From the IMG/VR virus record IMGVR_UViG_3300048016_000294, positions 1-44,558 of that record: 44,558 bases of DNA; one strand, 5' to 3'. Shown one piece after another: positions 20,206-37,991 of this stretch. Position numbers and translations under genes: made by a program. The number at the start of each line of letters is the position of its first letter. Within the stretch, counting starts at the first letter, position 1. The notes beneath the pieces were generated by a model that had not been told where the DNA came from, searched no databases, and was given only the letters and a program-made list of their open reading frames with translations. Source of the stretch: a virus.

Positions 20206-20991
20206 ATGTCGACCCTGAAATTCTCAGAATACCTAGCAGAGTCGGCAGTCAACTCACTCCCATCCGTCACAATCCTCCCAGGTTCGCACGTGGACGCAGT
20301 TAAAAATGCCATGCCTGAATATGGTGACGCAGTTCGGTGTGCGAGCAATGGTGCAGTGTTATATCGTGCTGTTAAACTATCGATGAATCATTCGTATGCG
20401 GTCGATCCAAAAACTGGTACCAGAACATCGACAAATGAACACAATCACCACACCGTACTGATGTCGGATATTCTACCATCGTGGGCAAGCTATCCCAGGC
20501 GAGACAAATCTCTGTGCTGTACCAATAGTGAATATGTTGCGTTAAATTATGGCCGTCAAGTGTTTGTCACACTACCTCACAATGGCACAACTCTTGCTGT
20601 CGCACCGCTAGGGGACATGTGGGAATCTTTCTCCATTACAAACCTAGAGAATTTGGCGTGGGATATAATCGACGCGACCGCCAAAACTATATCAACCAGT
20701 TCATACAAAGCTGCTAGGTACCACGCTGAGTACCTTGAGACTCTAATCGACATAAGTTCTATCCTAGAAATTGTTGGAGTACGAGCTAATAAGGCTGAGC
20801 TCGCTGAGTGGTTGAGTACACACAACCTCATGGCAAAGTTTGACAAGTATCTCAACCCCGAAACTAATGGGTTCAAGTTGATTAGTATATCCGAGCTGCC
20901 GACTTTAACTAAGCGCTCTCACGAGATTTGGTTCTCATCACCAGCCATCCTCATTCCAGGTGATAATTTCACCGCACCAACAAACCAATGA
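20206..20991 (+). CDS. Capsid-targeted protein, ADP-ribosyltransferase-like (paralogue A)
   Basis: 261 aa. The N-terminus MSTLKFSEYLAE|SAV closely resembles the T4 capsid-targeting peptide of IPI-III (MKTYQEFIAE|A), with a gp21-type site after Glu12. The rest is related to the minus-strand protein at 37254: shared LPSWA-x-YP-(R/K)R, a Ser/Thr pair after it, NG...(V/A)xP...D-(M/L)-W. Three parts follow the R / S-T / E order of ADP-ribosyltransferases: Arg54 in LYRA, CTNSEYVALNYG at 105-116, Glu240 in SHEIWFS. T4 Alt, an injected ADP-ribosyltransferase, is packaged by the same kind of tag. Function is inferred; the family match should be tested. Its stop overlaps the next start (ATGA). Confidence 0.5.
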   Translation: MSTLKFSEYLAESAVNSLPSVTILPGSHVDAVKNAMPEYGDAVRCASNGAVLYRAVKLSMNHSYAVDPKTGTRTSTNEHNHHTVLMSDILPSWASYPRRDKSLCCTNSEYVALNYGRQVFVTLPHNGTTLAVAPLGDMWESFSITNLENLAWDIIDATAKTISTSSYKAARYHAEYLETLIDISSILEIVGVRANKAELAEWLSTHNLMAKFDKYLNPETNGFKLISISELPTLTKRSHEIWFSSPAILIPGDNFTAPTNQ

Positions 20992-21704
20992 AATTCTCAG
21001 ACTACCTATCCGAATCGATCAACGATACAGGAATATTTAAAGCAGTATTCTTTGCTGGTTCCCCGGGGGCTGGCAAGAGTTATGTATCCAAACAAATTAC
21101 ATCTGGTGGCGTAGCGCCCCGGTTAGTGAATACCGACAAAGCCTACGAACACCTGGTGCACACTGCAGGAGCACAGTTTTCTGGAACTGCTGATGAATAT
21201 GTCGATAAAGCAATGCAACTGACGCAGACGTCTCTCGTAAACTACATCAATGGTGTACTTCCGATCTACATTGACGGAACTAGTAATAGCCCCAGTTCAC
21301 TTTTTCAGCGGATGGGTATTCTAGAATCTTTTGGATATGATGTTGGAATGGTGTTTATTAATACCGATCTTGACGTTGCGTTAGATAGGGCAGCAAGTCG
21401 CGAAAGGTTTGTTCCACCTGATTTTATCAAGTCTGTCCATGCTAAAGTAAACAAGAACAAATCATTTTATGCATCTAAGTTTGGACGTAACTTCGTTGAG
21501 ATCACAAACAACGGTGAATTAACTGATGAAGTTATTTTGGGTGGATACAGAAAAATGAGTAGCTTCTTCAGCTCCCCAATACAATCACCCATTGGGCAAG
21601 ATTTAAAAGAACGCATGGTAGAGGACAGACAGCAATACCTAGCACCAAACTATTTTTCTATCGAACAGATCCAGAAAAAGGTATCAGTTTGGTATAATTC
21701 TTAG
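20988..21704 (+). CDS. Capsid-targeted P-loop kinase-like protein
   Basis: 238 aa, start codon overlapping the previous stop. MKFSDYLSE|SIND is a capsid-targeting-like peptide with a cut site after Glu9. After it comes a strand and a Walker A motif, AGSPGAGKS (23-31), then VNTDKAYEHL, and a DGT and (L)DVALDRAASRER region. That layout is like polynucleotide-kinase and zeta-toxin type kinases, which phosphorylate nucleotides, nucleic-acid ends or UDP-sugars. The substrate cannot be read from the sequence. If packaged, it would reach the host with the DNA. No membrane segment. Confidence 0.6.
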   Translation: MKFSDYLSESINDTGIFKAVFFAGSPGAGKSYVSKQITSGGVAPRLVNTDKAYEHLVHTAGAQFSGTADEYVDKAMQLTQTSLVNYINGVLPIYIDGTSNSPSSLFQRMGILESFGYDVGMVFINTDLDVALDRAASRERFVPPDFIKSVHAKVNKNKSFYASKFGRNFVEITNNGELTDEVILGGYRKMSSFFSSPIQSPIGQDLKERMVEDRQQYLAPNYFSIEQIQKKVSVWYNS

Positions 21705-21746
21705 TGTTATTCTAACCCAACAATTTAATGAAATGAGCGCGACAAA

Positions 21747-22242
21747 ATGAATTTTTTACTATCAATTCTGCCAGAATTTTTCGCAAGGTGACAGCAATAT
21801 ACCGTCAACTAATTTTGATGTATATCAATTAGATCCTGACTTAGAGTTGTCTGAAATAGGTCCCGTGCTGTTCACATCACACAATCTAGCTACAGCAACT
21901 ATGGAAATGAATCGAATTCACAAAGATCGTGGCATCGAGGTAGGTGTTCTACAGGATGGTGAATACTGGAGGCAGTATATTAAAAATGATGATGTTGCAG
22001 AAGCGACTGATTGGATAGGTTCGGCAAAAACTCACGCACCTGATCACCTCTTTAGTGACGGATCAATTTCCGAAATCGTGAAGTGGGCACTATCAGCACA
22101 TTCAGGTGATTCTAAGAGAGCACTAGCCTCATTGAGTTTCTTCTTGAATCGCAATAGTAATATATCATCAAGAATTGTTGCCAAAGTTGAGGCTGCCAAG
22201 GACATCATCAAGCGAGATGCTGAACTAGCTCAATTGAAGTAA
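21747..22242 (+). pseudogene. Capsid-targeted protein gene with apparent frameshift
   Basis: ATG 21747 encodes MNFLLSILPEF, a capsid-targeting-like leader, and stops at TGA 21789. The +1 frame continues as SQGDSNIPSTNFDVYQLD and stays open to 22242. The join falls in a run of five T (21777-21781); removing one T gives a continuous 164-aa protein. The second frame opens only after a stop at 21748 and has no ATG or GTG before its conserved part, so the two parts almost surely belong together. The main body is charged and helical toward the C-terminus. It may be a real mutation, a sequencing error in the homopolymer, or less likely a programmed shift. If translated alone, the downstream part would need TTG 21847. 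Confidence 0.6.
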
Positions 22243-22249
22243 CCATCTC

Positions 22250-24904
22250 TCAAAATACCATCGGCATATCATCATAGTCATCAGTACTATCGGTAATCTC
22301 ATCATCTAACTCACCAACTTCATACAGTGTTTGAAATGCGTCTGGGTCATAAGACGACATCTGTTTGAGCACTCTACATATCAACAACCAGGTACTGATA
22401 CAGTCATCAGTACTCCCTGTCTGTGCAGCATAACTACCCTTCGTCTGTATGTACGTTTTAATTTCGCGGATAATATCAGCGCTCTTCATACCCAACTTAC
22501 CAGCTTCTGTCATTTCCTTAAAAACCTTACAGGCTTGGAGTTTGGTACGAGCATTTGTATTCATACCTATTTGTCGTCCATCATCACTAACGATCGAGAC
22601 ATTCTCAGGCAACTTCTCATCAGTTTCGAATAGCGTTATGATACCCTCACCGACCCCATTGTTCTCGACTGTAAAATGCACCTCCCAACCTGCATCGTCC
22701 GCCTTTTTCCAGATGTACCGTAGTATTTTGTATATGTCGCCTGTTGCGCTGATATTGGAGCGAAACTCCATCATCTGCTCAAGAGTTGGATACTCAACTA
22801 CTGTCACTACTGTATAGTCCCCACCCAAACCCTTACTTGGGTCACAAGTAACAATACACTGCTTGTTATACTCCTTCGTTGGTGGAGGATTGTTGTATTG
22901 TTCAGCGTAGCTATAGTTGTTAAGATTTGTATCACGATTAATAGGAAGGGCACGCGCTTGGTAATCTTTTTCGAAATTCTTCCAAATTTTGATTCCGTGA
23001 TTTGTATCGATGGGTTCCATTGATTTCAGCGTCTGTGCAAAAATACTGGAGATCAGGAGTGGTTCAGATGATAAAAAACGGCACTCAAACTCCTGTTGCC
23101 ACACCAACAAGCCATTCTTGGATATTTCACGCTCTTTAAACGCTTCGTCGCGCCCTGGTACTTGATTCCACTCAATGGCATGCGACACAAACCCATTTGT
23201 GCCAGCCTCGGCACCTCGCCACAGTGTAGCAAACAGATCTGCATCACCGTTTGGTGTAGATGTGATGAATAGCTTACCACCAGTCGCCAGAGTAGGTGAA
23301 ATCGAAGCCCACATCAACTCCTGAACTCTAGGTGGCACGAACCCAACCTCATCCAGATATAGGATCGAAAAAGAACCACCTCGACCAGTCGTCTCGCTAG
23401 TAGCATCACTTTCAATTCGACATCCATTATCAAACTTCAAACTCAGTGCATTCCACCCATCATCCTTAACCCCTGGCTTCAACCACATTGGCAGGTGCTC
23501 GTACATGTACTTGATACGAGTAATCATGGCTCGTGAGTTTTTGTGCTTATTACTCGCGATTAGTACAGTCTTGTCCTTGCGGAAAATAGAGAACCAAAAC
23601 AAATATGCGCAACTGCTCTCAGAATTGTGTGTGAGTATTAACTCAGTCCCAGCACAAAATAGATGATCATGAGCAGCAACAGAAATACACTTAGACTGGA
23701 AGTTTGTTCCTAGCTCTGTTATACCAACTATTGTCCTACTGTTGGAATACCTAGCATGAGGGGCACTAATTCGCTGGCGGCGCAACTTGTGTGGAATCCT
23801 GAACGCATCAAATTGATCTCGTGTGATAATAAAGGATAGTCTGGTGCTGTTTGTCTGCTCGAATTCCTTAGTACTGACCTTAATGCCCAAACTTTCTATT
23901 AGTTGTTTGACGTCTGATATTAGAGTTGTGTTTTTTCTGGTTAACTGAATTGCTAGTTCAGAACCAGTGGAATTGATAAACCCATCTGTGTCCATTAATC
24001 CTTGTAGTAGCGCAATCCTATCAGAAATATGTGCCTGCTTATAACTATCTGGAATACATTTGCTTTTTACGCTCCCTGGCTTTGCCTCCTGGCGTACACC
24101 CAACAAACCAAGCTTTTGGTAGAAGCTTGAGTTTTGTATCAAGTATGATCGGCAGTTTTTACCAATTTGAACTGATGATGGTACGACTTTAAATATGAAA
24201 CCTTGATTTTGAAAGTGATTCGTGTGTTCGTCGTGGCACGTAAAGTATGCGTTTCTGGAGTGACCATCTCCTAACCACGCTCCCAATAGATAAGGCTCGA
24301 TCAACAAATCTGATTTTGAGAATTCGATTGGTTTGACTGTAGGTATGTAATATGCGTACTCGGTATACCCGTTCGACCTCAGCTTACACCAGTTACTATC
24401 TAGCAACTCCTTGGTGGTGAGAGTGCATTTTTTATGCTTTAGGAATCGATTATATGCAGTCCACTTGTGGGTTTCACTAGCGCGTATGACACTACCATCG
24501 TTAAATCTAACTTCATACATATTAGGCTCAGTGAATGTGGGAGATTCGCCAATTACTAGAGTAGGTTTACCATCACTGCCATACACGTAATCGCCAGGGT
24601 GGACATCGCCCATCCGCTTAAAGCCACTTGGTGTGAGTATTGGAGTTTCGATACACAAGTCCTTACCAGATTGCCGCGACCACTTAACAATCACATCCTT
24701 GTTGGTGTGATATTCATCAACAAGCTCTTTTTGGTAGTCGTACATCACGAATAGAGTCTGACCTCTCACGGGGTGACTGACATACACGTAATTTTCAATA
24801 AAGTACAGCGGGTCATTGAAGCACTTAGTGTATTCGATTACCTGAGCCTCAGTCAGGTCTGAAGCCTCGCCTGCTTTTTTAATTAGTGGATTTTTTGTAG
24901 CCAA
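22250..24904 (-). CDS. 17: Large terminase gp17, interrupted by an intein
   Basis: 884 aa including a 346-aa intein (residues 82-427); the spliced enzyme would be 538 aa (T4 gp17 is 610). The start is TTG 24904, supported by AAAGGGG six bases upstream and no ATG nearby. ATPase parts: SRQSGK (76-81) joined after splicing to Ser428 to make a regular GKS P-loop; Walker B ILYLDE (514-519); ITSTPNG coupling motif (547-553). Nuclease parts: Asp688 in TCDPS, Glu747 in FTVENNG, Asp833/834 in STDDC. gp17 pumps DNA into the prohead and cuts it at headful. The gene is on the minus strand in the middle of + strand head genes, tail to tail with the broken gene at 21747. Confidence 0.93.
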   Translation of the reverse strand: MATKNPLIKKAGEASDLTEAQVIEYTKCFNDPLYFIENYVYVSHPVRGQTLFVMYDYQKELVDEYHTNKDVIVKWSRQSGKDLCIETPILTPSGFKRMGDVHPGDYVYGSDGKPTLVIGESPTFTEPNMYEVRFNDGSVIRASETHKWTAYNRFLKHKKCTLTTKELLDSNWCKLRSNGYTEYAYYIPTVKPIEFSKSDLLIEPYLLGAWLGDGHSRNAYFTCHDEHTNHFQNQGFIFKVVPSSVQIGKNCRSYLIQNSSFYQKLGLLGVRQEAKPGSVKSKCIPDSYKQAHISDRIALLQGLMDTDGFINSTGSELAIQLTRKNTTLISDVKQLIESLGIKVSTKEFEQTNSTRLSFIITRDQFDAFRIPHKLRRQRISAPHARYSNSRTIVGITELGTNFQSKCISVAAHDHLFCAGTELILTHNSESSCAYLFWFSIFRKDKTVLIASNKHKNSRAMITRIKYMYEHLPMWLKPGVKDDGWNALSLKFDNGCRIESDATSETTGRGGSFSILYLDEVGFVPPRVQELMWASISPTLATGGKLFITSTPNGDADLFATLWRGAEAGTNGFVSHAIEWNQVPGRDEAFKEREISKNGLLVWQQEFECRFLSSEPLLISSIFAQTLKSMEPIDTNHGIKIWKNFEKDYQARALPINRDTNLNNYSYAEQYNNPPPTKEYNKQCIVTCDPSKGLGGDYTVVTVVEYPTLEQMMEFRSNISATGDIYKILRYIWKKADDAGWEVHFTVENNGVGEGIITLFETDEKLPENVSIVSDDGRQIGMNTNARTKLQACKVFKEMTEAGKLGMKSADIIREIKTYIQTKGSYAAQTGSTDDCISTWLLICRVLKQMSSYDPDAFQTLYEVGELDDEITDSTDDYDDMPMVF
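23624..24661 (-). other. LAGLIDADG intein in terminase P-loop, probable class 3
   Basis: Residues 82-427 of the terminase. It begins DLCIETPILTPSGF, which aligns with intein block A such that Asp82 takes position 1. It has block B ETHKW (144-148), two LAGLIDADG helices (LLGAWLGDG 206-214 and LLQGLMDTDG 299-308), block F SKCISV (404-409) and block G LTHN (424-427) before Ser428. Trp148, Cys406 and Thr425 make the WCT set of class 3 inteins, which lack a nucleophile at position 1. Placing the start at Asp82 restores GK|S; starting at Cys84 would leave a GKDLS P-loop. Confidence 0.8.
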
Positions 24905-24910
24905 CAGCCA

Positions 24911-24917
24911 CCCCTTT
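24911..24917 (-). promoter_or_regulatory. Ribosome site for the TTG start of gene 17
   Basis: Minus-strand AAAGGGG six bases before TTG 24904. It decides the start because no ATG exists before residue 54. Confidence 0.6.
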
Positions 24918-24922
24918 GAGTG

Positions 24923-24941
24923 TAAATAGTACTATTATTTA
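24923..24941. promoter_or_regulatory. Divergent late promoters, palindromic TAAATA pair
   Basis: TAAATA on + (24923-24928) faces the homing-endonuclease gene at 24977; TAAATA on minus (24941-24936) faces the terminase gene. The pair forms a near palindrome around TAGTACTATT. Confidence 0.6.
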
Positions 24942-24976
24942 CGACCCACATTTTCCGTGTATTCTCACCACATTCA

Positions 24977-26398
24977 ATGGCAACACTAACACACGAAACA
25001 TTTTTAGATAATACTAGACAACTCCACGACGGCACACAGCCCACTGATGCCATCACTGTATTACTACACTTAACAATTGTGGGTGCAACCCATGAGCCAA
25101 TCAATCAAACACCTGCAGAGCACATTCATGGAAACCAGGGCTGTCCTCGGTGGGCAACTGTATCAAAGTCTAAGAAATCTCAGACGAAGTGGACACTAGA
25201 TACCTTCTTAAAAAAAGCACACACAACTCATGGTAACAAGTATGAGTATTCTACAGTTAAGTGGACGGAGTCCGACAGCTCAAAAACACGCGTTACAATC
25301 AACTGTCCAGTTCATGGAGAATTCACACAAACGGCAGCAAATCACGTCGGCGGAAACGGTTGTCCAAGGTGTTCGGTAACAGGCGCGCTGTCCAGCGCGG
25401 ATTTTATTGAAAGCACCACTCGTGTGCATGGTGATGTGTATGACTATACCCGAGTACTACACGAATGGACACTAACTACAAAGACAGACTCTAAGGTGAT
25501 GATCACTTGTAGAACCCACGGAGATTTCTACCAAAAAATTGCCAACCACATCCACCTCAAGAATGGTTGTCCGAAGTGTGCCAAAACTTCTCGAACCACT
25601 CAACAGGGGTTTCTCACAAAAGCTCGCACGATACACGGTGACCGATATGATTACTCTAGTGTCGAGTGGTCGGAACAAACTAACGTTAACAGTAAAATTA
25701 CAATCACTTGCATGATGCACGGACTATTCACACAAAACATCCGTAACCACATTGTCGGTAAGAATGGGTGCCCGACTTGTGCAGGTAAGACCAAACTAAC
25801 AAGTCAAGTATTTGTTACCAGAGCTCGTGAGATACATGGCACCAAGTATGATTATTCACGTGTAGTCATCGGTGAAGAGTTCTTCATGAATAATACAAAA
25901 CTCATTATCGGTTGTGAGAAGCACGGTGATTTCACCCAAACCGCAGCCAAACATATAAATGCTAGGACTGGGTGTCCTGGGTGCAAAGCTAGTAAAGGTG
26001 AGGCTGCAGTTCAGATGTGGTTAGATGCTCATAGCATCGCGTACACACCTCAGAAAATGTTCGATGGTTGCATCAACACTCTCACTGGGCGTAAGCTAAA
26101 GTATGACTTTTATGTACCTGAACACAATACGTGTATTGAATTCCACGGCCAACAGCACTATCAAGCAATATTGATTGGCAATAATGACCAGGTTAACTGG
26201 ACACAACAACAGCACACGCGTGCTCAAGTTGTATTTGAAGAACAACGCCACCGAGATCGAGTGAAGGTGCAATATTGTGTTGATAATGACATCAAGATGT
26301 TGGTAATTGCATATACTGAAATCAAACAAGTTGATGTGTTGTTGACTAATTTTTTCTGTTTGGGTTTAGATGTGTCGTTAAAATCTGGAGTTCATTAA
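24977..26398 (+). CDS. Free-standing Vsr/PD-(D/E)XK-type homing endonuclease with zinc repeats
   Basis: 473 aa. It holds five units of about 60 residues of the form HG-x-x-YDYS...ITC-x-x-HG-x-F-x-Q...NH...GCPxC (DUF723-like zinc repeats). The first unit is degenerate and has lost most Cys. The C-terminal third has KYDFYVPEHNTCIEFHGQQHY followed by basic H-x-x-R helices and IKMLVIAYTE, the pattern of the Vsr-like homing endonuclease family (EDxHD/I-Bth0305I type). The zinc repeats probably bind DNA. The gene lies divergent from the intein-bearing terminase, and such enzymes cut conserved phage genes that lack the element. It is probably mobile, inserted between gp17 and gp19 genes. Confidence 0.75.
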   Translation: MATLTHETFLDNTRQLHDGTQPTDAITVLLHLTIVGATHEPINQTPAEHIHGNQGCPRWATVSKSKKSQTKWTLDTFLKKAHTTHGNKYEYSTVKWTESDSSKTRVTINCPVHGEFTQTAANHVGGNGCPRCSVTGALSSADFIESTTRVHGDVYDYTRVLHEWTLTTKTDSKVMITCRTHGDFYQKIANHIHLKNGCPKCAKTSRTTQQGFLTKARTIHGDRYDYSSVEWSEQTNVNSKITITCMMHGLFTQNIRNHIVGKNGCPTCAGKTKLTSQVFVTRAREIHGTKYDYSRVVIGEEFFMNNTKLIIGCEKHGDFTQTAAKHINARTGCPGCKASKGEAAVQMWLDAHSIAYTPQKMFDGCINTLTGRKLKYDFYVPEHNTCIEFHGQQHYQAILIGNNDQVNWTQQQHTRAQVVFEEQRHRDRVKVQYCVDNDIKMLVIAYTEIKQVDVLLTNFFCLGLDVSLKSGVH

Positions 26399-26493
26399 GT
26401 ATGTTATATTAGCACCAACTACACATTTGATGGGTAGTTCAGAATTGCAATTGCTTGGTCAGGTCTCGTGGTCTCATAAAGCACATCTCCATA

Positions 26494-26515
26494 ACACCAC
26501 AGAACTCTGTGGTGT
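26494..26515. other. Intergenic hairpin of unknown role
   Basis: 10-bp perfect inverted repeat (26494-26503 with 26506-26515) in the 180-nt gap before the tail tube gene. There is no T-run on either side. Confidence 0.5.
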
Positions 26516-26547
26516 AAACGAGTATGTACATATCTAGAGTTGAATGT

Positions 26548-27166: not shown

Positions 27167-27180
27167 TTCTCAGTAATGTA

Positions 27181-27360: not shown

Positions 27361-27810
27361 ATGAACGAACAACAACTCCGCCTGGCCAGAATGGCCGGCA
27401 TTACACTAAAAGAATCTGACTACTCTGAAGAGCCTGAGATGTCACCTGAGCAAGTTGATGGTGAACTTGAACAAACTCCAGCTGAGCGACTAGCCGCAGC
27501 CCTCGCGAGTATTCCAGATGTAGACAGCATTGAAGGTTGTGAAGGTGAGATTGAAGCCCTTATTACAGCCGCAGAAGCACTCAGTGCAGCATGTGCTCCT
27601 GTCGATCAAGAGCAGGAACAAGAATCTGATGAGTTAACAGAGGGCGCATCATCGTCGTACATGTTCTCCAAAAAATCGAAAGAACTCTTTGATATCGACG
27701 AAGATACGTACATTGAGGTGAAAGCAGAATCTCCAATTCAAGCTGTAATCAAAGCGAAAGAGCTATTCAAGAAAGATGGGTATACTGGTAAAATTCACCT
27801 GGTTAGCTAA
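27361..27810 (+). CDS. Hypothetical acidic protein, possible prohead component
   Basis: 149 aa. It opens MNEQQLRLARMAGITLKESD, a short basic helix then a possible gp21-type site (TLKE|S). The next 90 residues are strongly acidic (many Glu in SEEPEMSPEQ and similar) and the last 45 are a basic folded-looking domain (YIEVKAESPIQAVIKAKELF). Acidic low-complexity sequence is common in core and scaffold proteins. It has its own TATAAATA promoter and lies next to gp4. Function unknown. Confidence 0.55.
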   Translation: MNEQQLRLARMAGITLKESDYSEEPEMSPEQVDGELEQTPAERLAAALASIPDVDSIEGCEGEIEALITAAEALSAACAPVDQEQEQESDELTEGASSSYMFSKKSKELFDIDEDTYIEVKAESPIQAVIKAKELFKKDGYTGKIHLVS

Positions 27811-28338: not shown

Positions 28339-28809
28339 ATGTCACTCTTAACACAAATCCTCCGAGAAATGGCTACTACCAACGAGTCTGCCGCATACGC
28401 CAAACAATTGGTTCGTGGTGAAAAATATGGCCCAGGCATTCTCAACAAATTAGATCGCTGGTTTATGGATGCAATGTTCACTAAACACAAAGACAGGTTT
28501 ATTCCTACTGATGCGGCACTCAAGCAGTTAAAGCAAGCTGGTTTTAGTGATGATCAGATCTCGATAATCAGGGATGCAGCTATTTCAGCTAGTTATGTTG
28601 CTTTGGATAGGATGATAGCAAAATATCCAGAAAGAGTACCTACTAAGTATGTTTCTCGTACGAATTCCACAGCATTCCAACTCGGTGATTTGTATCTCAA
28701 TGTGTCTGAGGAACTGCATGATGAATATTTGGAGCTGATGCAGAAGTTATTCGACTCAAAGCTAGACAAGCAGGCTGCTCACTTAGATATCACACCTATT
28801 GAGAAATGA
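28339..28809 (+). CDS. Capsid-targeted hypothetical protein
   Basis: 156 aa. MSLLTQILRE|MATTNES matches the hydrophobic-x-Glu leader found on several other genes here. The remainder is helical (FSDDQISIIRDAAISASYVALDRMIAKYPER) and shows no motif I recognise. If gp21 cuts after Glu10 the mature protein would be 146 aa and packaged in the head. It is first in a run of unknown genes driven by the tandem promoter at 28303. Confidence 0.55.
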   Translation: MSLLTQILREMATTNESAAYAKQLVRGEKYGPGILNKLDRWFMDAMFTKHKDRFIPTDAALKQLKQAGFSDDQISIIRDAAISASYVALDRMIAKYPERVPTKYVSRTNSTAFQLGDLYLNVSEELHDEYLELMQKLFDSKLDKQAAHLDITPIEK

Positions 28810-28840: not shown

Positions 28841-29458
28841 ATGTATCTCTTCCAAACTACACTACACGAATACGCACAAAGCTTGAGTGAGTCTACCATA
28901 GACCACGGACCAACAACCGGTGGGTACTGGTCTAATCTTAGATGGGTAAAGCACCGATCGGGTGTGGGAATGCCAGAAGTAACTTTATTTGGTGGGCCAG
29001 AAGGAGATACAACTGGCCATGCCTACAGAGCAGTGTTTATTAAGTATACAGACGGTCTAGATCCTAATATTCAGTTCTCGCGAACTGGCGTTCATAATCC
29101 CGATCGTGGTTCCTCGACCGTGAGATTCGGAACAAACACCAAAGATTTTACCTCACCAACAGAAATCAACCCATACCTACAATCCATCGGTCTGCCAGAA
29201 CTATCCACATCTGACTTAAATTATATTACTAAGGATGCAGACAGATATCACATCCCTGTGCAGTACGAGCACAGTACCCGCGGAACGACGGTAGCATTTC
29301 CCAAAGAATTCTTTGCCTCAATTAAAGCTGACTCGAATGATGCTCAATCGTTCGTATTTGCTGCAACCCGCGCAATGAAGAAAAAACTTGACTTCATCCC
29401 TTCTCGCCCGAGCCCCATTATATCAACCGCCTTAACAAAACTGTTTAACGATATGTAA
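28841..29458 (+). CDS. Capsid-targeted hypothetical protein
   Basis: 205 aa from ATG 28841; the longer frame from TTG 28799 would overlap the previous gene. MYLFQTTLHE|YAQSLSES is a leader of the same type, and a second Glu site follows at LSE|S. The body is Gly/Thr-rich with a HG-type centre (HYRAVFIKYTDG-like strands) and a basic helix near the end (AATRAMKKKLDF). No family recognised. Probably delivered in the head with its neighbours. Confidence 0.55.
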   Translation: MYLFQTTLHEYAQSLSESTIDHGPTTGGYWSNLRWVKHRSGVGMPEVTLFGGPEGDTTGHAYRAVFIKYTDGLDPNIQFSRTGVHNPDRGSSTVRFGTNTKDFTSPTEINPYLQSIGLPELSTSDLNYITKDADRYHIPVQYEHSTRGTTVAFPKEFFASIKADSNDAQSFVFAATRAMKKKLDFIPSRPSPIISTALTKLFNDM

Positions 29459-29971: not shown

Positions 29972-31909
29972 ATGAGCAAACTATTAAACATCCTCACAGA
30001 GATCGATCACAGAGTATTTCGTGTTGGGTCTGAACTCCACATTTCGGGTGGTGAAATTGGCATCATGGTCAATCAAACACCCGACAACTTTGAAAAAGCG
30101 GGTGAGCCATTTTCTCGCTCTACTGCAAAGATTGTGTACAAAGTAACGCACTCCAAAGACCGTTCACGAATCGGCACACTTCAGGTGCAATATGAGTCGA
30201 GAATCTATCTAAAAGAGTCAACGACATCCGCCTACAGAGATCTATTCTCTGAGCTTGATGATGAAATTCGTCTAAGGGGGTATCGATTAGAAAAGTCAGG
30301 ATATCCTGTCACACAATCTCACTATACTTGGTGGGTTGAAGAGTTTTTCCGAAATTCGTCTGTCGTACCAGTTAGCATGGTACCGCAGATGATTCGACAG
30401 TTCGTGGGAGAATATCCTCTGTCGATGTATACCACGGATGTGGTTGAGAACGCTAATCCTTCCGTGCACGTGGGAAACGAGGAAAGTGATTTGTTCACAA
30501 AAGTGTACGCTCGAGTTTGGGATGGCAAATATCAGGCACTCAATCAATACCGCTCAGCAGTGACTGATGCGATCAATCGTGCATCAGGGTACGGCGGAGA
30601 TTTAGACATGGCTGAATTGGTTGATTTATACATCAAGCAATACCCATTTGTAGTTGCTGAAGCACGCAGTGAGAATACGCGATCGCTGACATCACTAATC
30701 GCTCAAGCTCAAGATAGTATAATCGACATTATTCCACGCCCATCTGTATCGAGTGATATCAAGCAGGCGCTGAGATCTACACTAGGTAAACTGGATGCAG
30801 CATTTGCGCTCGCATCTCGGATAACGGAAGATGATATGAGTAGTGACGGTGATGAGTATATCGACGAAGATGATGAAGTTGTTGCAGAGCCTACTGAACA
30901 GTCTACCTCACATCCACTACGTGACTTGGCTCAACGTGGAGAACCAGCGCTGAATCTAGATTGGCTCAGCAACTTTGACATCAAGGAAGTTAAAACAGCA
31001 ATCGATGAGATCGTCAGCTTTCTAGCTTCGTGTGATGATGATACTCAGATAGAGTTGTTGCGTAACGACATCCGCATACTCGACAATCTCGCCACTGCAC
31101 TCAAGTCGAAAGAATCGGTTGATCAACACTGGGAAATTGCGACTCAACAAGGTTCGTGTGAACATTTGCATCCTGAATTTGTGAGCAAAATGAATTCAGC
31201 CCTGAACGCAAATCTCATTCATGAAGCTCACGATAAAAAGAAAGCTGTTACTTTTAGTGATCACAAAGAATGGACAGATGCGGCAACTACTCGTGAGATG
31301 AACATTAAACCAGGCAAGGGTGGATTTGAGGGTGCGTATTGCGGCACCTCGGGTAAACTGATGGGCATGTGGAAAAACAACAAGGGTTGGATTGCCCCCG
31401 TCGTAAAAGAAAGTGTACGCAGTATCGATGAAACCACCAAAGTAAATTCAATAACCCACAAAGAAGGAATTTTAGATCGCTATAGAATTAATGTTGGTGG
31501 TGTGGATTCACATCAACTCAACCAAATTATCGATAAAAGCAACCACGAGGATTCGTGGGCAATTAAGGGTAAGGGTAATAGATACGCTGAAGAAGATGGT
31601 AGTGAATCTGTTGGATTTAAAGAAGCTAGGTATAGGTCAATCGCATCTCGTGTGTTGAACGATTACTTCAAACGTCAGAAATCCGCTCCCCAATCTAAAA
31701 ATGAAGGTACTGATACCTCAGCATATCCCCCAATTGGTGATGATAAAGGCGTCGTAATCAAGGCTGGTGATGATATCGTCTGGAGCGAACGAGGATACAA
31801 ACAAACAGGAACCGTCATCGCTGATCCAAAGTATACTGGTGGGCTGAAAGTTGGTGGGCGATCGTTAAAAAACATTTACGATAGCTCCAAAACACTTAAA
31901 GTTGTGTGA
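29972..31909 (+). CDS. Large capsid-targeted hypothetical protein
   Basis: 645 aa. MSKLLNILTE|IDHR is another hydrophobic-x-Glu leader. Parts seen in order: an N-terminal mixed domain to about residue 130, a helical region to 290, an acidic linker (DGDEYIDEDDEVVAEPTEQ, about 291-309), a second helical region, a basic part (HDKKKAVTFSDHKEW) and a C-terminal beta-type domain (VIKAGDDIVWSERGYKQTGTV) that looks like a small SH3/KOW barrel. The size and several domains recall a packaged effector such as T4 Alt (682 aa), but I see no R / S-T / E set here. Function unknown. Its stop overlaps the next start region. Confidence 0.6.
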   Translation: MSKLLNILTEIDHRVFRVGSELHISGGEIGIMVNQTPDNFEKAGEPFSRSTAKIVYKVTHSKDRSRIGTLQVQYESRIYLKESTTSAYRDLFSELDDEIRLRGYRLEKSGYPVTQSHYTWWVEEFFRNSSVVPVSMVPQMIRQFVGEYPLSMYTTDVVENANPSVHVGNEESDLFTKVYARVWDGKYQALNQYRSAVTDAINRASGYGGDLDMAELVDLYIKQYPFVVAEARSENTRSLTSLIAQAQDSIIDIIPRPSVSSDIKQALRSTLGKLDAAFALASRITEDDMSSDGDEYIDEDDEVVAEPTEQSTSHPLRDLAQRGEPALNLDWLSNFDIKEVKTAIDEIVSFLASCDDDTQIELLRNDIRILDNLATALKSKESVDQHWEIATQQGSCEHLHPEFVSKMNSALNANLIHEAHDKKKAVTFSDHKEWTDAATTREMNIKPGKGGFEGAYCGTSGKLMGMWKNNKGWIAPVVKESVRSIDETTKVNSITHKEGILDRYRINVGGVDSHQLNQIIDKSNHEDSWAIKGKGNRYAEEDGSESVGFKEARYRSIASRVLNDYFKRQKSAPQSKNEGTDTSAYPPIGDDKGVVIKAGDDIVWSERGYKQTGTVIADPKYTGGLKVGGRSLKNIYDSSKTLKVV

Positions 31910-31914
31910 TCGAT

Positions 31915-32331: not shown

Positions 32332-32344
32332 TATAGGATATGTT

Positions 32345-32710
32345 ATGAAATTTTCTGAATATATGATACAAGAAGGTGTTTTTGATTTTCTGAGAAAATC
32401 AAAACAACCAACAAACGTTCCACTAACATCAGTAGATATTGCTCTGATACAAACGGCGATTCCTGGTCATCACATTAGCACAGATTGTGGTGATTTGTTG
32501 GACAGACCAGTACTCAATGTATACATCCATAGATCGCGGAAGAACAAACTAATCAATGGTTTACCTGCTGATTTAGCATTTCGAAAAGATTCGGCAGGAA
32601 TATATCACGTTGGAATTAGTTACTATCCAAACGGGCACACAATTCCACTAACCCACGATGATAAAGCTTTCACCTCAGCCAAACAATTGCAGGATTTGTT
32701 GGGGTTGTGA
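32345..32710 (+). CDS. Capsid-targeted hypothetical protein
   Basis: 121 aa from ATG 32345, with AGGAT nearby upstream; the longer TTG frame overlaps the gp16-like gene. MKFSEYMIQE|GVFD is the closest match here to the T4 internal-protein leader. The body after residue 25 looks like one small alpha/beta domain (VYIHRSRKNKLINGLP and YHVGISYYPNG). No family recognised. Confidence 0.6.
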   Translation: MKFSEYMIQEGVFDFLRKSKQPTNVPLTSVDIALIQTAIPGHHISTDCGDLLDRPVLNVYIHRSRKNKLINGLPADLAFRKDSAGIYHVGISYYPNGHTIPLTHDDKAFTSAKQLQDLLGL

Positions 32711-32745
32711 TGATTAGCACCCCAATCGCCACTTTTCCTGCCAAC

Positions 32746-32769
32746 ACTATAAATAATACTAAATATAGT
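32746..32769 (+). promoter_or_regulatory. Tandem late promoters for scaffold-capsid operon
   Basis: TATAAATA (32748-32755) and TAAATA (32760-32765) lie within a 6-bp inverted repeat (32746-32751 with 32764-32769). The scaffold ATG is at 32796. Confidence 0.7.
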
Positions 32770-32795
32770 CGTTAACCATATACAAAGGATAAATT

Positions 32796-33734
32796 ATGTC
32801 TGTAGAAGTACTAAAGAGTTTGTTTGAAAGCGAACTTCTCACTGACGATACTAAGGTATCAATTAAAGAAGCATTTGAGCAAGTAATTACTGAAGCTAAA
32901 GAAACTGCTTACGTGGAAGTAACACAAGAGTTAACAGAAAAGTTTGCTAAAGAATATGTTGCTGATCGCGATACGCTAATCGAATCAGTGGACCAATTAG
33001 TAACTGCCGCATTGACTAAGCACATCACTGAACACAAAGCGGATCTGGAATCCTTCCGTGATTTGGAAGCAGAATCAGCAACACGCTTGGTTGAAGCAAA
33101 GGAAGAACTTGCTGTCACTGTGAAGGAAGACTTCAAAGCATTGATTGAAAAATTGGATTCATTCCTTGATATTGCGATCACAGAAGAGTTTGAAGAGATC
33201 AAGGCTGATTTGGTTGAATCTCAACGCAACGCACTCGGTGCTAAGTTGTTCGAAGGTTTCCGCTCTGAATTTGAACAATTCTATGTCCAACAGACTGGCA
33301 TCGCCGGCCAATTGGAAAAACTAACATCTGCACTCCAAGAGTCACAAGCAGAAAATGCAGCACTGAAGAAGTCTCTGAATGAGTCTCAGCGTGCAGCAAA
33401 AATGTCAACAATTTTATCATCACTTGGCGGAAAGCCAAAACAAGTGATGGAAACTATTCTCGCAACTGTCGCTACAGACAAATTGCAGGAAACATACGAT
33501 CGATACATCGACCGTGTAATCACAGAGGGCGCAGCATCTGCTCGTTCACTGGTGGGAAGCGAAGAAACAGAAAAGGAAACTCAAGTACTGTCTGAATCTA
33601 AGGTAGATCCCCGTAAGCTGGAACTGAAATCTGGTGATACTCAACGCAGTACCAAGCGTATTGTTAATGAGTCTATCTCAGGTCTATCAGACGAAGAAAA
33701 ACGTCGCTTGCTCGCAAGCGCGGGTCTAATTTAA
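32796..33734 (+). CDS. 22: Prohead scaffold protein gp22
   Basis: 312 aa, nearly all acidic or basic helix, starting MSVEVLKSLFESELLTDD. T4 gp22 is 269 aa. Long coiled-coil stretches (AEESATRLVEAKEELA-like, and LQESQAENAALKKSLNESQ), low aromatic content and placement directly before the major capsid gene are the usual traits of gp22. It forms the prohead core and is chopped to small peptides by gp21; several hydrophobic-x-Glu sites are present (for example FESE, LVES). AAGGAT precedes the start. The C-terminal segment LSDEEKRRLLASAGLI is of the kind conserved among relatives. Confidence 0.88.
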   Translation: MSVEVLKSLFESELLTDDTKVSIKEAFEQVITEAKETAYVEVTQELTEKFAKEYVADRDTLIESVDQLVTAALTKHITEHKADLESFRDLEAESATRLVEAKEELAVTVKEDFKALIEKLDSFLDIAITEEFEEIKADLVESQRNALGAKLFEGFRSEFEQFYVQQTGIAGQLEKLTSALQESQAENAALKKSLNESQRAAKMSTILSSLGGKPKQVMETILATVATDKLQETYDRYIDRVITEGAASARSLVGSEETEKETQVLSESKVDPRKLELKSGDTQRSTKRIVNESISGLSDEEKRRLLASAGLI

Positions 33735-33756
33735 TATTCAGAAAGGAAAATTGACC

Positions 33757-35070
33757 ATGAATTTACTAGAAAACTGGAGCGAAGCCAAGTCCACCCTCCT
33801 GACCGGTTTGACCGGCGATACACGCTCAGCAGTTGCGCAACTGTTGGAAAACCAAAAACAAAGCATGACTGAGTCTGCTTCGGGCGGTTCTACACAAGCA
33901 TCTGACATTGCTGGCTTCCGCAACATCCTGTTGCCAATGGTTCGCCGTGTGATCCCAGGTACAATTGCAACCCAATTGGTTGGTGTTCAAGCGATGAAGG
34001 CCCCTGTGTCTGTTGTGTATAGCATGCGCTACAAGTACAACGAAACAGTCGGCGCTCCAAGCACTGTTAATGCAGGCGATGAAATGTTCGGCAATGCTGA
34101 GCCAATCCGCCGCTACTACTCTGGTGATACTGACGCATCTTCTGTTGCACCAGGTGCATCAGGCTTTGGCGCCGTAAATGAGGCAAACATCAGCGGTGCT
34201 CCTACAGGTAGCGCATTCGGTGCAAACACTGGCTTCTCAAGCTTGGATGGTTGTACTACAGGTGGTTCTGGTGGTCGTATCGAAGGTTCTGGTGGCCGTA
34301 AGGTTTCATTGGAAGTCGTGTCTCAAGCCATCGAAGCAAAATCACGCCGCTTGCAAACGAGCTGGACTATCGAAGCAATGCAAGATATGAACAGCCAACA
34401 CGGTATGAACATCGAGACTGAGATGACTGCTGGTATGTCTGCAGAAATTATCTCTGAAATCGACAATGAAGTGATTAGTGATCTGTTGGCACTTGCTGGC
34501 ACAACCGCAACATGGAACGGCGCACTTGCTGCTTCTCCATACACACCAACATTTGCCGGCGATCGCTTTGCAGCTCTTGGTACAATCATCAACGCAGTTG
34601 CAAACGAGATTGGTCGTAAGACACGTCGCGGTACTGGTAACTTTATCGTTGTGTCACCAATGATTTTGTCAGTGTTGCAAAGCGCTTCTAAGTCGGTGTT
34701 CGCACCTGCTGTCGAAGGTTCATTCAAGGGCCCTAACAACACTATGTTGGCAGGTACATTGAATGGTTCTATCAAAGTATACACATACTTGTGGAACCAA
34801 GCATCTTCTACAACTTTCGGTGGATCTGGTGATGATGAGATCTTGGTCGGTTTCAAAGGTGGCGAGGGTCAACAAGACGCTGGTTACTTCTACTGCCCAT
34901 ACATTCCATTGATGAGCACTGGTGTGGTTATGAACCCTGTTACATACCAACCATCTATGTCTTTGCTGACACGTTACGCAAAAGCAACGTTCACCAGCAC
35001 AGCAACATCTCTTGGTAATTCAAGCGACTACTACGGCAAGATTGTAGTGAATGGTTTGAACTTCGCATAA
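33757..35070 (+). CDS. 23: Major capsid protein gp23
   Basis: 437 aa from ATG 33757, with GAAAGGAAA ahead. The N-terminal 39 residues contain a delta-type helix ending QSMTE|SASG, a likely gp21 cut after Glu39. Then come the gp23 landmarks: FRNILLPMVRRVIPGTIATQLVGVQ, MKAPVSVVYSMRYKY, RRLQTSWTIEAMQDM, and near the end YCPYIPLMSTGVVMNPVTYQPSM followed by LTRYAK. T4 gp23 is 521 aa, so this copy is smaller and lacks part of the insertion domain. It forms the capsid hexamers. Smooth codon use and a strong terminator fit very high expression. Confidence 0.95.
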   Translation: MNLLENWSEAKSTLLTGLTGDTRSAVAQLLENQKQSMTESASGGSTQASDIAGFRNILLPMVRRVIPGTIATQLVGVQAMKAPVSVVYSMRYKYNETVGAPSTVNAGDEMFGNAEPIRRYYSGDTDASSVAPGASGFGAVNEANISGAPTGSAFGANTGFSSLDGCTTGGSGGRIEGSGGRKVSLEVVSQAIEAKSRRLQTSWTIEAMQDMNSQHGMNIETEMTAGMSAEIISEIDNEVISDLLALAGTTATWNGALAASPYTPTFAGDRFAALGTIINAVANEIGRKTRRGTGNFIVVSPMILSVLQSASKSVFAPAVEGSFKGPNNTMLAGTLNGSIKVYTYLWNQASSTTFGGSGDDEILVGFKGGEGQQDAGYFYCPYIPLMSTGVVMNPVTYQPSMSLLTRYAKATFTSTATSLGNSSDYYGKIVVNGLNFA

Positions 35071-35083
35071 TCCATAATGCACC

Positions 35084-35115
35084 AAAAAGCCCGCATTGAA
35101 TGCGGGCTTTTTTTT
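35084..35115 (+). terminator. Rho-independent terminator after major capsid gene
   Basis: 12-bp stem (35084-35095 with 35101-35112), 5-nt loop, T-run to 35115; the strongest terminator in the window. Confidence 0.92.
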
Positions 35116-35169
35116 ACCATGAGGAAAGTCTGTAGATTAGTAGGACATTGAGATCGTAGTGACCACCAT

Positions 35170-35177
35170 CATAAATA
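35170..35177 (+). promoter_or_regulatory. Late promoter-like CATAAATA
   Basis: One-base variant of the late consensus, 48 nt before ATG 35225. Confidence 0.5.
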
Positions 35178-35224
35178 TACCATAATCTCACATACAAACC
35201 CACAAAGCTGCCATCCAACTTATC

Positions 35225-36880
35225 ATGCAACCTACGCCCCCAACCCCATACGCTACATCTCTGTTAGAGAAGAACCAGATTCAACTGTTAGAGCCATTTA
35301 AGGGAGCCAAAGCACACCATCAAATGAAATGTGTCGTGTGCAATCACGTGTGGTCTGCGACACCGCTATCCAAGAGACAGGCATTTAAGAAGAATGGAGT
35401 CTCGGGGTGCCCTAACTGCCACAACCAACGGAGACTAGCCGCAGTCCACAGTGTGCAAACACCAATATTGGATATGTGGGCAAGGGAAGGGTTAGAAGTG
35501 CTTAGTCCTTTCACAGGTCTTAGGCAAACAACCCACAAGTTGTGGTTCTATAACAACAAGTGTGGCCATAAGTTTGAAACTTACCCAGGAAATTTGATAA
35601 ACCTGAACTCAGTATGCATTGTCTGTGGTATACACGACCGCACTTCGGGTGTGACAGCGTGGTCGAAAACTAATTCAACCAAGTGGAGAGAGACAGCACC
35701 CGCATGGCGATCGTACAAAGCAATGGTATCTGCACTGACCGAAGAGACGTACCGAAATTTCAAACACATCATAAACCCCAACAACCTGCCACGTGGCAGG
35801 GCGGGCGTCCAGGGTGCATATCACTTAGACCACTTTGTCCCCACGAGATACTGCTTCGACAATAACATCCCCCCAGAAGTGTGTGCTGATGCGTCGAATT
35901 TGCAGATGTTGGGGTGGAGAGAAAATGTAGGATCTCGCCACAATATTAAAGGTGTGATTCCCCCACTATTTTTCAAATATATTTCAGCAAATTCGAAAAT
36001 TGAATACTTCGCTGATGTCCTACAGGGCATTTTCCCGACAGGACAAAAGTTTATCAGGGTGGGAGAAGTTGTAGTGACATTTTTTGACCCCTTATCAAAC
36101 CGCGCGTTGGTTGTACTATCAATTCAAGACAAAAGATCTAATCGGCGCAATGCATTAGTAACTTCAAGAGCACTAGCAGACGCAGGTGTTAAGTATACGA
36201 TACTATTTGAGGATGAATTTAACAACATCAATCTACTATCTGCAAAGTTAAAGCACTACACTCAATTAGGAACTCCCAACAGGATTCATGCTAGACAGTG
36301 TACGATTCGAGAGTGTCCTCCTGCTGAGAAAAAGCAATTGTTAGATAGTAACCACATACAGGGGAATGATACGTGTTCAATATCACTGGGAGCATACTTT
36401 GAAACTACGTTGGTTGCGGTAATGACATTCTCCGCTCCGCGGGTCGCTCTTGGGCAAAAGAATAAATCACTATCCGACAAGCAAGGTGTGTGGGAATTAA
36501 GTAGATTCTGTACTGATGTTAAGTACCGTATCCCTGGAATTGCATCCAAGTTACTGACCCACTTCAAGCGAACCCAACCGGATTGGCGGCGGATATACAG
36601 CTTTGCTGATAAGAGGTGGAGTGTGGGTAACATGTATACCATACTTGGATTCAAACTAACAGTAGACAATCCACCATCTTATTTCTACGTAGTTGACGGT
36701 GTTCGTAAGCACAGGTGGAACTATCGTAAGGACAATCTCAAAAAGATCCTTCCTCAGTTCGACCCCAAACTAACGGAGTATGCTAATATGGAATTGCATG
36801 GGTTCTGGAGAGTCTGGGATTGTGGGACATTAAAATTTGAAGTGAACCGAGCTGACCTAAGCTGTGACTCACCTGTGTAG
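35225..36880 (+). CDS. Free-standing HNH homing endonuclease
   Basis: 551 aa. N-terminal zinc-type pairs (C36/C39, C62/C65, C131/C134) lead to an HNH-like core: HLDH at 200-203, then N225 and N234 in a short beta-beta-alpha stretch. The C-terminal half has a region with SFADKRWSVGNMYTILGF and PSYFYVVDG, followed by basic RKHRWNYRKDNLKK; I know this unit from other phage homing endonucleases, where it resembles an acetyltransferase fold. It sits alone between the capsid terminator and the GroES-like gene. Probably a mobile element targeting a neighbouring capsid-region sequence. Confidence 0.72.
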   Translation: MQPTPPTPYATSLLEKNQIQLLEPFKGAKAHHQMKCVVCNHVWSATPLSKRQAFKKNGVSGCPNCHNQRRLAAVHSVQTPILDMWAREGLEVLSPFTGLRQTTHKLWFYNNKCGHKFETYPGNLINLNSVCIVCGIHDRTSGVTAWSKTNSTKWRETAPAWRSYKAMVSALTEETYRNFKHIINPNNLPRGRAGVQGAYHLDHFVPTRYCFDNNIPPEVCADASNLQMLGWRENVGSRHNIKGVIPPLFFKYISANSKIEYFADVLQGIFPTGQKFIRVGEVVVTFFDPLSNRALVVLSIQDKRSNRRNALVTSRALADAGVKYTILFEDEFNNINLLSAKLKHYTQLGTPNRIHARQCTIRECPPAEKKQLLDSNHIQGNDTCSISLGAYFETTLVAVMTFSAPRVALGQKNKSLSDKQGVWELSRFCTDVKYRIPGIASKLLTHFKRTQPDWRRIYSFADKRWSVGNMYTILGFKLTVDNPPSYFYVVDGVRKHRWNYRKDNLKKILPQFDPKLTEYANMELHGFWRVWDCGTLKFEVNRADLSCDSPV

Positions 36881-36942
36881 CAACCAGAGCAATAAACCGC
36901 ATAGAATAATTTATCAGACAATTCTGACAACAAGGAGATTTT

Positions 36943-37257
36943 ATGAATTTACAACCACTCCACGATTTCGTGGTGATTAAAAAACAGGCACAGGTAACTG
37001 AGACAGCATCGGGTATTGTGTTGGTATCCAAAGCTGAGAGTGATACAGAAGTCGGGACAGTAGTGGCTGTCGGCCCAGGTACCTTCATTGGCGATAGATT
37101 TGATCCAATGGTATTATCAGTCGGGAATAGAGTGATGTTCAACCGCAAAAGTGGTCAGGAAATCGAGCACGAAAAAACAAAATATCTATTCTTGAAGCAA
37201 CGTGATATTATGGGTGTTGTGCAACCACCTGTATCACGTGACGCAGGTCAACCTTAA
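36943..37257 (+). CDS. GroES-type co-chaperonin
   Basis: 104 aa, near the length of cellular GroES (97 aa). MNLQPLHDFVVIKK, then TASGIVL (21-27, the mobile loop whose IVL contacts GroEL), VGTVVAVGPGTF, VGNRVMFNRKSGQEI, and LFLKQRDIMGVV follow the GroES pattern end to end. AAGGAG lies nine bases before the ATG. In T4 the co-chaperonin gp31 is needed for folding gp23, and gp31 is only distantly GroES-like; here the sequence is a plain GroES. The nearby gp23 gene fits such a role. Its stop overlaps tail to tail with the next minus-strand gene. Confidence 0.9.
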   Translation: MNLQPLHDFVVIKKQAQVTETASGIVLVSKAESDTEVGTVVAVGPGTFIGDRFDPMVLSVGNRVMFNRKSGQEIEHEKTKYLFLKQRDIMGVVQPPVSRDAGQP

Positions 37258-37991
37258 AGAGCTGCTCGAAGTCGGTCCCACATACTGGGCGAAATCATAA
37301 CACACTTACCAGATACCCAGACTTCACGATCTTGTGTCATGAGTGCTCTTGGTAGTGTGGCTGTAGTGTACTTTTTTAATTGAAGTGATTCGGGTGAGTA
37401 TAGGTTCCCAACCCACCACTTAACATCCGATGTGGTCTGGAGTTGAGTGTGGAGCTGCTGGTTCAAAAAGCTCAAATCACTGTCTGATAACTTGTCGAGA
37501 TCTGAGTACTCCTCACAACCCACCTTCTTGAACACTGAATTCAAATCATCAACCATGTAATTCCGGGTAAAGCTACGTACAGGTGTAGCCCATAAGTCGT
37601 GGTATGGACATACCCCAATCTGAACTCCATTGAAGGGGATTAGAATCCACACATCTCGGAAGTTGCCAAAGGCACTTGCTGTACCTCGATTGGTAGATCC
37701 AATAAAGCTTCTAGAACGCTTTGGCCAACCAGCCCAACTAGGGATTGCATCAAATACAGATGTATAGAAGTTTGTGGTGTTTTTAGATTTTCTTACAGTT
37801 TCACTGGGGTCCACGTATAAAAAGCCTGCTTCTGACGTCAACTGCTTATCCCCTCTGTAGATTGGGGTGTTACTTGTCAACATCCACAGCGCATCGGAAC
37901 AGTGTGCTCTTAACATTTCTACAGCACTAGTATCATCTTGAGTAGTATACTTGGGTGCTGTCTCGAATAAAATTTTTGTGAAAAGATTCAT
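37254..37991 (-). CDS. Capsid-targeted protein, ADP-ribosyltransferase-like (paralogue B)
   Basis: 245 aa. MNLFTKILFE|TAPK is a capsid-targeting-like leader. It shares with the protein at 20206 a set of blocks in the same order: IYRGDK (Arg46), VDPSETVRKS, NTTNFYTSVFDAIPSWAGWPKRSRS (66-95), GSTNRGTASAFG (98-109), PFNGVQIGVCP and HDLW, and a late REVWVSG (Glu223). This R / S-T / E order is that of ADP-ribosyltransferases. The match is better than in paralogue A. It is on the opposite strand, overlapping the GroES stop by 4 bp, and is driven by a minus TAAATA at 38029-38024. Function is inferred. Confidence 0.55.
   Translation of the reverse strand: MNLFTKILFETAPKYTTQDDTSAVEMLRAHCSDALWMLTSNTPIYRGDKQLTSEAGFLYVDPSETVRKSKNTTNFYTSVFDAIPSWAGWPKRSRSFIGSTNRGTASAFGNFRDVWILIPFNGVQIGVCPYHDLWATPVRSFTRNYMVDDLNSVFKKVGCEEYSDLDKLSDSDLSFLNQQLHTQLQTTSDVKWWVGNLYSPESLQLKKYTTATLPRALMTQDREVWVSGKCVMISPSMWDRLRAAL

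What the first reader, a model, noticed from the sequence alone, without database searches (positions are those of the whole stretch)
20206..37991. A dispersed cohort of proteins with capsid-targeting leaders: probable injected effectors
At least eight proteins start with a short peptide of the form M-(K)-x-F/L-x-x-hydrophobic-L/M/I-x-E: 20206, 20988, 21747 (broken), 28339, 28841, 29972, 32345 and minus-strand 37254. MKFSEYMIQE and MKFSDYLSE resemble the T4 leader MKTYQEFIAE, which sends internal proteins and Alt into the prohead and is cut after Glu by gp21. The bodies after the leader are unrelated to each other apart from two, and the genes interleave with the gp21, gp22 and gp23 genes. Inference: an enlarged set of head-packaged, DNA-co-injected proteins with several unknown functions.
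Basis: partly seen in the sequence, partly recalled or inferred. Interest (0 to 1): 0.85.

Follow-up and report, generated by a model that had tools for sequence, protein, structure and literature searches.

The report
Phage proteins tagged for head packaging
A T4-like phage carries at least seven intact genes (plus one broken one) for mostly unrelated proteins that share a short removable tag like the one T4 uses to load proteins into its head and deliver them with its DNA; the same tag sits on a kinase family and a large unnamed enzyme-like family in many uncultured and giant phages, although no virion of this phage has been examined.

Summary
Seven intact genes and one broken gene start with a 9-12-residue leader ending hydrophobic-x-Glu, the gp21 cleavage rule. 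A motif fixed beforehand from T4 mutant data matches 5 of 34 window genes against 2 of 202 internal methionines (P=0.0008); the other leaders are weaker matches.

Four lines support head targeting. (1) Kinase family of 20988: across 68 distinct homologues the leader varies in length and sequence, but Glu sits four residues before a conserved Asp in 67, with L/I/M at P3 in all. (2) Leaders move between genes: in a relative, orthologues of 28339 and 28841 carry near-identical leader DNA (94-97%), then unrelated bodies. (3) Leaders resemble those of the same phage more than those of the same body family (P=0.0005). (4) Sister phages carry MKTFKQFITE or MITFKQFLSE on the same bodies, nearly the T4 sequence MKTYQEFIAE.

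Agrobacterium phage Atu_ph07 has ten tandem tagged paralogues of 20206/37254 inside a published cluster of virion proteins, but I could not read its per-gene table. Packaging and cleavage are likely; injection is inferred from T4; functions are open. The 20206/37254 family may be ADP-ribosyltransferases, but fold searches did not confirm it. New variant of the T4 internal-protein system.

The parts
19560..20198 (+). gp21-type prohead protease (Peptidase_S77), the enzyme expected to cut the leaders; own N-terminus MHTTFLRE
   Evidence: PF03420 E=6.6e-25
20206..20991 (+). YRG-family protein (phrog_12810 N-terminal half; possible ADP-ribosyltransferase) with leader MSTLKFSEYLAE|S at 20206-20241
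   Evidence: phrog_12810 E=4e-24; alignment with 17 relatives, R54 and S102 nearly invariant, E240 invariant
20988..21704 (+). P-loop kinase (Zeta_toxin superfamily; phrog_12810 C-terminal half) with leader MKFSDYLSE|S at 20988-21014
   Evidence: PF06414 E=5e-8; leader Glu kept in 67/68 distinct homologues
21747..22242 (+). broken member: leader MNFLLSILPE at 21747-21776, stop soon after, body continues in another frame; same lesion in several contigs, intact relatives in L006/L007
27361..27810 (+). second leader type MNEQQLRLARMAGITLKE|S (27361-27414), acidic 149-aa protein; not in the finding
   Evidence: two adjacent genes in G002 share this leader type
28339..28809 (+). 156-aa protein of unknown function, leader MSLLTQILRE|M at 28339-28368
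28841..29458 (+). 205-aa protein of unknown function, leader MYLFQTTLHE|Y at 28841-28870; orthologue in L019 carries the 28339-type leader
29972..31909 (+). 645-aa protein of unknown function, leader MSKLLNILTE|I at 29972-30001
32345..32710 (+). 121-aa protein of unknown function, leader MKFSEYMIQE|G at 32345-32374
32796..33734 (+). gp22-type scaffold/core protein (expected docking partner of the leaders), N-terminus MSVEVLKSLFE|S
   Evidence: position between gp16 and gp23, acidic coiled sequence; family assignment from own knowledge of T4 gp22
33751..35070 (+). gp23 major capsid protein; processing site SMTE|SASGG with Glu codon at 33871-33873
   Evidence: [LIMV]-x-E in the homologous place in relatives
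37254..37991 (-). second YRG-family protein, leader MNLFTKILFE|T at 37962-37991; AlphaFold model pLDDT 85.6, residues 1-14 below 50
   Evidence: phrog_12810 E=2e-26

Best explanation
The leaders are capsid-targeting sequences of the T4 internal-protein type. Made late, each tagged protein docks through its short amphipathic leader on the gp22 scaffold core of the prohead; gp21 then cuts after hydrophobic-x-Glu, releasing the mature body inside the head, where it is trapped with the DNA and delivered to the next cell. The tag is a portable module: leaders are exchanged between neighbouring genes and match other leaders of the same phage, so new bodies can be recruited. Bodies include a P-loop kinase and an amplified YRG enzyme-like family, most likely acting on the host at the start of infection. 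Shown by sequence: leader, cleavage-rule conservation, exchange, gp21 in the same genome. Inferred: packaging, cleavage, injection, function.
For: Pre-set T4 motif enriched. Leader Glu in 67/68 and P3 L/I/M in 68/68 distinct kinase homologues with leaders of variable length; 8/8 further homologues in metagenome-assembled genomes; 45/47 listed YRG-family leaders end [LIVMF]-x-E, both exceptions having Asp. gp23 of the clade has the same rule at its processing site. L019 neighbours: 94-97% leader DNA identity, then 39% and 32% (background 39%). For 28841, M1, L8 and E10 survive replacement of the leader. Leaders follow phage, not body, permutation P=0.0005. G008-G010 and relatives carry MKTFKQFITE/MITFKQFLSE on YRG-family and kinase genes scattered among head and tail genes; T4 IPIII is MKTYQEFIAE and its first 10 residues suffice (PMC9026906). 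gp21 found in the window and in 9 of 10 relatives tested, including Atu_ph07. Atu_ph07 array gp53-gp62 lies in CDS 31-76, where MS found 29 virion proteins, only 2 predicted structural (PMC6102473; numbering). Leader low-confidence (disordered) in the 37254 model. A distant kinase homologue in a phage with no detectable S77 protease (Streptomyces phage Gilson) has no leader.
Against: No virion data for this phage; the per-gene Atu_ph07 table was not readable. The motif alone has false hits (T4 ligase). The conserved Glu before the kinase could partly be structural, since it also sits inside the fused Atu_ph07 protein. Atu_ph07 leaders (M[KR]WxQLxE) and those of 28841 and 32345 fit the T4 residue 4/7 pattern poorly. 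The gp21 search was negative in G002, G009, G010, G018 and G019, which are contig fragments. G004, with 73% gp23 identity, has no strict-motif gene.
Confidence: 0.8

Rival explanations
1. The leaders do target proteins to the prohead and are cut, but the bodies are head-assembly or core components (like gp67/gp68 or IPIII's proposed assembly role) and act inside the head, not in the host.
For: T4 core proteins are also gp21 substrates and gp22 here has a similar N-terminus (PMC9026906). Several bodies are small and helical or acidic (27361, 28339).
Against: One body is a nucleotide-binding kinase; another family is amplified to about ten copies in one phage and not detected in T4, HTVC008M, Melnitz and several gp23 relatives; patchy, amplified, enzyme-like genes fit host-directed roles better.
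Confidence: 0.12
2. The N-terminal similarity is an ordinary amphipathic start shared by chance or by N-terminal composition bias.
For: The loose form of the motif occurs at about 10% of internal methionines and in some structural genes.
Against: Pre-set strict motif P=8e-4; position-specific conservation over 68 homologues; leader-limited DNA identity between neighbours.
Confidence: 0.03
3. The conserved L-x-E-G/S before the kinase is part of the kinase fold, and the YRG-family leaders are unrelated signals.
For: The element is kept even in the fused Atu_ph07 protein (EVTE|GVND).
Against: The same rule ends leaders of YRG-family, 28339, 28841 and 29972 bodies; the leader upstream of P3 is free to vary in length; leaders correlate within phages across bodies; the homologue in a phage without detected S77 has no such element.
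Confidence: 0.05

Closest known systems
T4 internal proteins IPI, IPII, IPIII and their capsid-targeting sequence
   Same: Short N-terminal leader ending hydrophobic-x-Glu, unrelated bodies behind it, gp21 and gp22 in the genome; leader in sister phages nearly identical to MKTYQEFIAE.
   Different: Different bodies; genes scattered among the structural genes; at least seven intact tagged genes in 44.6 kb; packaging not shown here.
T4 Alt
   Same: A head-packaged, injected, gp21-processed enzyme (PMC9026906, PMC10468400); the YRG family may be ADP-ribosyltransferases with YRG / S-x-x-C-T-T / EVW residues.
   Different: No sequence link to Alt and no fold match to any solved structure; many paralogues instead of one.
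phrog_12810 / Atu_ph07 gp53-gp62
   Same: Direct homologues of 20206, 37254 and 20988 by profile, each with its own leader.
   Different: In Atu_ph07 one copy is fused to the kinase (778 aa); in the window they are separate, overlapping genes with two leaders.
Zeta_toxin / polynucleotide kinase / L-seryl-tRNA(Sec) kinase superfamily
   Same: 20988 matches PF06414, phrog_505 and L-seryl-tRNA(Sec) kinase structures.
   Different: Only superfamily-level; substrate unknown; carries a gp21-type leader.
phiKZ / SPN3US processed ejection proteins
   Same: Head proteins cut after Glu by an S77-related protease, some ejected (PMC9026906).
   Different: Different phage group, S/A-x-E rule in phiKZ; shared bodies not tested.

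Membership tests
T4-type capsid-targeting-sequence (CTS) proteins | N-terminal leader of about 10 residues or more ending L/I-x-Glu | tested here: met
   P3 is L or I in all eight window leaders; leaders are 9-12 residues here
T4-type capsid-targeting-sequence (CTS) proteins | Hydrophobic/aromatic residues at T4 positions 4 and 7 (targeting) | tested here: inconclusive
   Met in five window genes and in G008-G010 leaders; not cleanly in 28841, 32345 or Atu_ph07
T4-type capsid-targeting-sequence (CTS) proteins | gp21-type protease in the same genome | tested here: met
   PF03420 in the window and in Atu_ph07, HTVC008M, Melnitz and others
T4-type capsid-targeting-sequence (CTS) proteins | Unrelated bodies behind interchangeable leaders | tested here: met
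   Leader-only DNA identity in L019; within-phage leader similarity
T4-type capsid-targeting-sequence (CTS) proteins | Protein present in virion, cut after Glu, injected | not testable with these tools
   Only cluster-level MS for Atu_ph07 (PMC6102473)
ADP-ribosyltransferase | R - S/T - E catalytic residues in conserved motifs | tested here: inconclusive
   Nearly invariant YRG Arg and Ser and invariant C-terminal Glu in A2; invariant R and E in A10
ADP-ribosyltransferase | ART fold or profile match | tested here: not met
   No Pfam, no PDB sequence and no PDB fold match for two confident models; hhalign to a T4 YRG-containing protein probability 11%
Zeta_toxin / P-loop kinase superfamily | Pfam match above curated cut-off with Walker A | tested here: met
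   PF06414 33 bits against 22.3; GSPGAGKS

The most novel reading that the evidence does not exclude
A portable head-packaging tag supports a large, rapidly reshuffled arsenal across uncultured T4-like and giant phages: an amplified enzyme family (about ten tagged paralogues in one genome) and a partner kinase are loaded together, and in Atu_ph07 are made as one polyprotein that the prohead protease separates at an internal V-T-E site, so that both enzymes are delivered at entry.
Probability: 0.35. Interest if true: 0.78.

Novelty: new variant of a known kind. Interest (0 to 1): 0.62.

Why it matters
T4 internal proteins are a known anti-defence layer, and new ones have been found in T-even phages by their leader (PMC12373910). 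Recognising the same tag far outside T-evens gives a simple sequence rule for predicting virion-delivered proteins in uncultured and giant phages, and supplies named families (a kinase family with more than 500 viral loci and the phrog_12810 family) to test. Leader exchange between neighbouring genes shows how a phage could recruit new cargo quickly.

Tried and rejected
Fold searches to prove that the YRG family are ADP-ribosyltransferases: both models confident, no PDB match, so the label is kept as a possibility only. hhalign to T4 Alt and a T4 YRG-containing protein: no support. Whole-family alignments were too diverse for a degenerate-pattern scan. tblastn of 28339, 28841, 29972 and 32345 in 50,697 phage records: no match, so their functions stay open. 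The strict motif over all Atu_ph07 ORFs is weakly informative (19/808 against 34/2491, P=0.04) because its leaders are shorter. Late-promoter scan (TATAAATA) found few sites and none specific to the tagged genes. One motif hit at 70 was rejected as an internal start of a truncated gene.

Full report
What was checked. The window is a 44,558-base fragment of an uncultured T4-superfamily myovirus. It holds gp20, gp21 (Peptidase_S77, E=6.6e-25), gp17, gp19, gp4, gp16, gp22 and gp23 (gp17, gp19 and gp22 by sequence inspection and position).

Beyond chance. To avoid fitting the motif to this window I took it from published T4 genetics: in IPIII (MKTYQEFIAE) residues 4 and 7 direct targeting and residues 8 and 10 direct processing, and gp21 cuts after L/I-x-Glu (PMC9026906). 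The motif hydrophobic-x-x-hydrophobic-[LIVM]-x-E near the start hits 5 of 34 window genes against 2 of 202 internal methionines (Fisher P=8e-4). The same search over T4 gives 9 of 252, including two MKTYQEFIAE genes and gp24, but also DNA ligase (the T4 gp24 and ligase names are from my own knowledge of those sequences). So the motif enriches for head-targeted proteins but does not prove them.

The kinase family is the clearest case. 20988 encodes a Zeta_toxin-superfamily kinase. Eight relatives in metagenome-assembled genomes show the same. A distant relative in Streptomyces phage Gilson, where no S77 protease was detected, begins almost at the P-loop with no leader. That is one control, and the absence of the protease there rests on a profile search.

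Leaders are modular. In L019, whose gp23 is 87% identical, the adjacent orthologues of 28841 and 28339 both begin MSILKQVLQEMV. Their first 33-36 bases are 94-97% identical and the next two blocks of 36 are 39% and 32% identical, the background level. The 28339 body is about 95% identical between window and L019 up to residue 123 while its leader has diverged, and for 28841 the residues M1, L8 and E10 survive replacement of the leader. Over 56 leaders, similarity is higher between different bodies in one phage (mean 0.97) than between the same body family in different phages (0.53; label permutation P=0.0005). The leaders were collected by hand from earlier calls, and the permutation ignores relatedness among phages. 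The pattern is what targeting to each phage's own scaffold core predicts.

Sister phages show nearly the T4 sequence itself. Contigs G008, G009 and G010 carry about twenty YRG-family and kinase genes, most with leaders such as MKTFKQFITE, MITFKQFLSE and MITFKEYMMTE, dispersed among terminase, sheath, portal, gp4 and baseplate genes (neighbour names by sequence inspection). One further unrelated 150-aa protein in G010 has MITFKEFLAE.

The YRG family. 20206 and 37254 match the N-terminal part of phrog_12810, and 20988 the following part. Atu_ph07 has eleven copies with leader M[KR]WxQLxE or a close variant, ten of them in tandem; one (778 aa) is fused to the kinase, with EVTE|GVNDKHIFKA at the junction. 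The paper on Atu_ph07 reports 131 virion proteins by mass spectrometry, 29 of them in CDS 31-76 with only two predicted structural (PMC6102473). Counting CDS from the record places the array at gp53-gp62, inside that cluster. Which of these were detected individually is in a supplement I could not read. Conserved Arg (YRG), Ser and C-terminal Glu recall ADP-ribosyltransferases, and T4 Alt is a packaged, injected ADP-ribosyltransferase (PMC10468400). But Pfam, PDB sequence search and fold searches with two confident models (pLDDT 85.6 and 88.0) found no such match, so the enzyme class is open. In the 37254 model residues 1-14 are below pLDDT 50, as expected for a removable leader.

Scope. The 95% relative G001 has two more tagged genes just beyond the window's right end, a third YRG-family copy (MKLATILAE|A) and a 272-aa protein (MVSLFTHALFE|G). 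The more distant G004 (gp23 73%) has no strict-motif gene, so the cohort is lineage-specific. 27361 and two adjacent genes of G002 share a second, longer leader type.

Comparison with what is known. Internal proteins of T-even phages are described as diverse proteins sharing only the targeting sequence, and some inhibit type IV restriction enzymes (PMC3012670; PMC12373910). This finding is the same principle in other T4-superfamily lineages with different bodies. Packaging, cleavage and injection remain to be shown in virions.

Noticed in passing
window 22250-24904 (-): The large terminase gene appears to carry an intein within its ATP-binding motif: the terminase sequence is interrupted at RQSGKD|LCIETPILTPSGF and resumes after LILTHN|S; relatives L007 and L017 read RQAGKSEVSCAYLFWF without an insert.
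   Followed up: partly
window 24977-26398, 35225-36880, 38067-39053 (-): Three proteins with HNH/zinc-repeat or homing-endonuclease-like sequence lie among the structural genes; 38067 matches phrog_12434 (HNH endonuclease).
   Followed up: partly
window 40110-40904 (-) and 36943-37257: A PhoH-like gene and a GroES-like gene lie near the capsid gene; phoH near the capsid gene is described for freshwater Far-T4 phages (PMC4360716), so this phage may belong to that group.
   Followed up: partly
G002 (L147 region, contig 24428-24971): Two adjacent short genes share the leader MNNQRLAELAGIxxTE followed by different bodies, resembling window 27361.
   Followed up: no
Atu_ph07 49504-50592 (L105:505-1593, -): Gene next to the YRG array begins MRLFQLLE and has a weak acetyltransferase (GNAT) match, possibly another tagged enzyme.
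   Followed up: partly
L165 (kinase), L169 and L170 (YRG family): A few leaders end in Asp instead of Glu; in T4 IPIII Asp at this place allows packaging but blocks cutting (PMC9026906).
   Followed up: no
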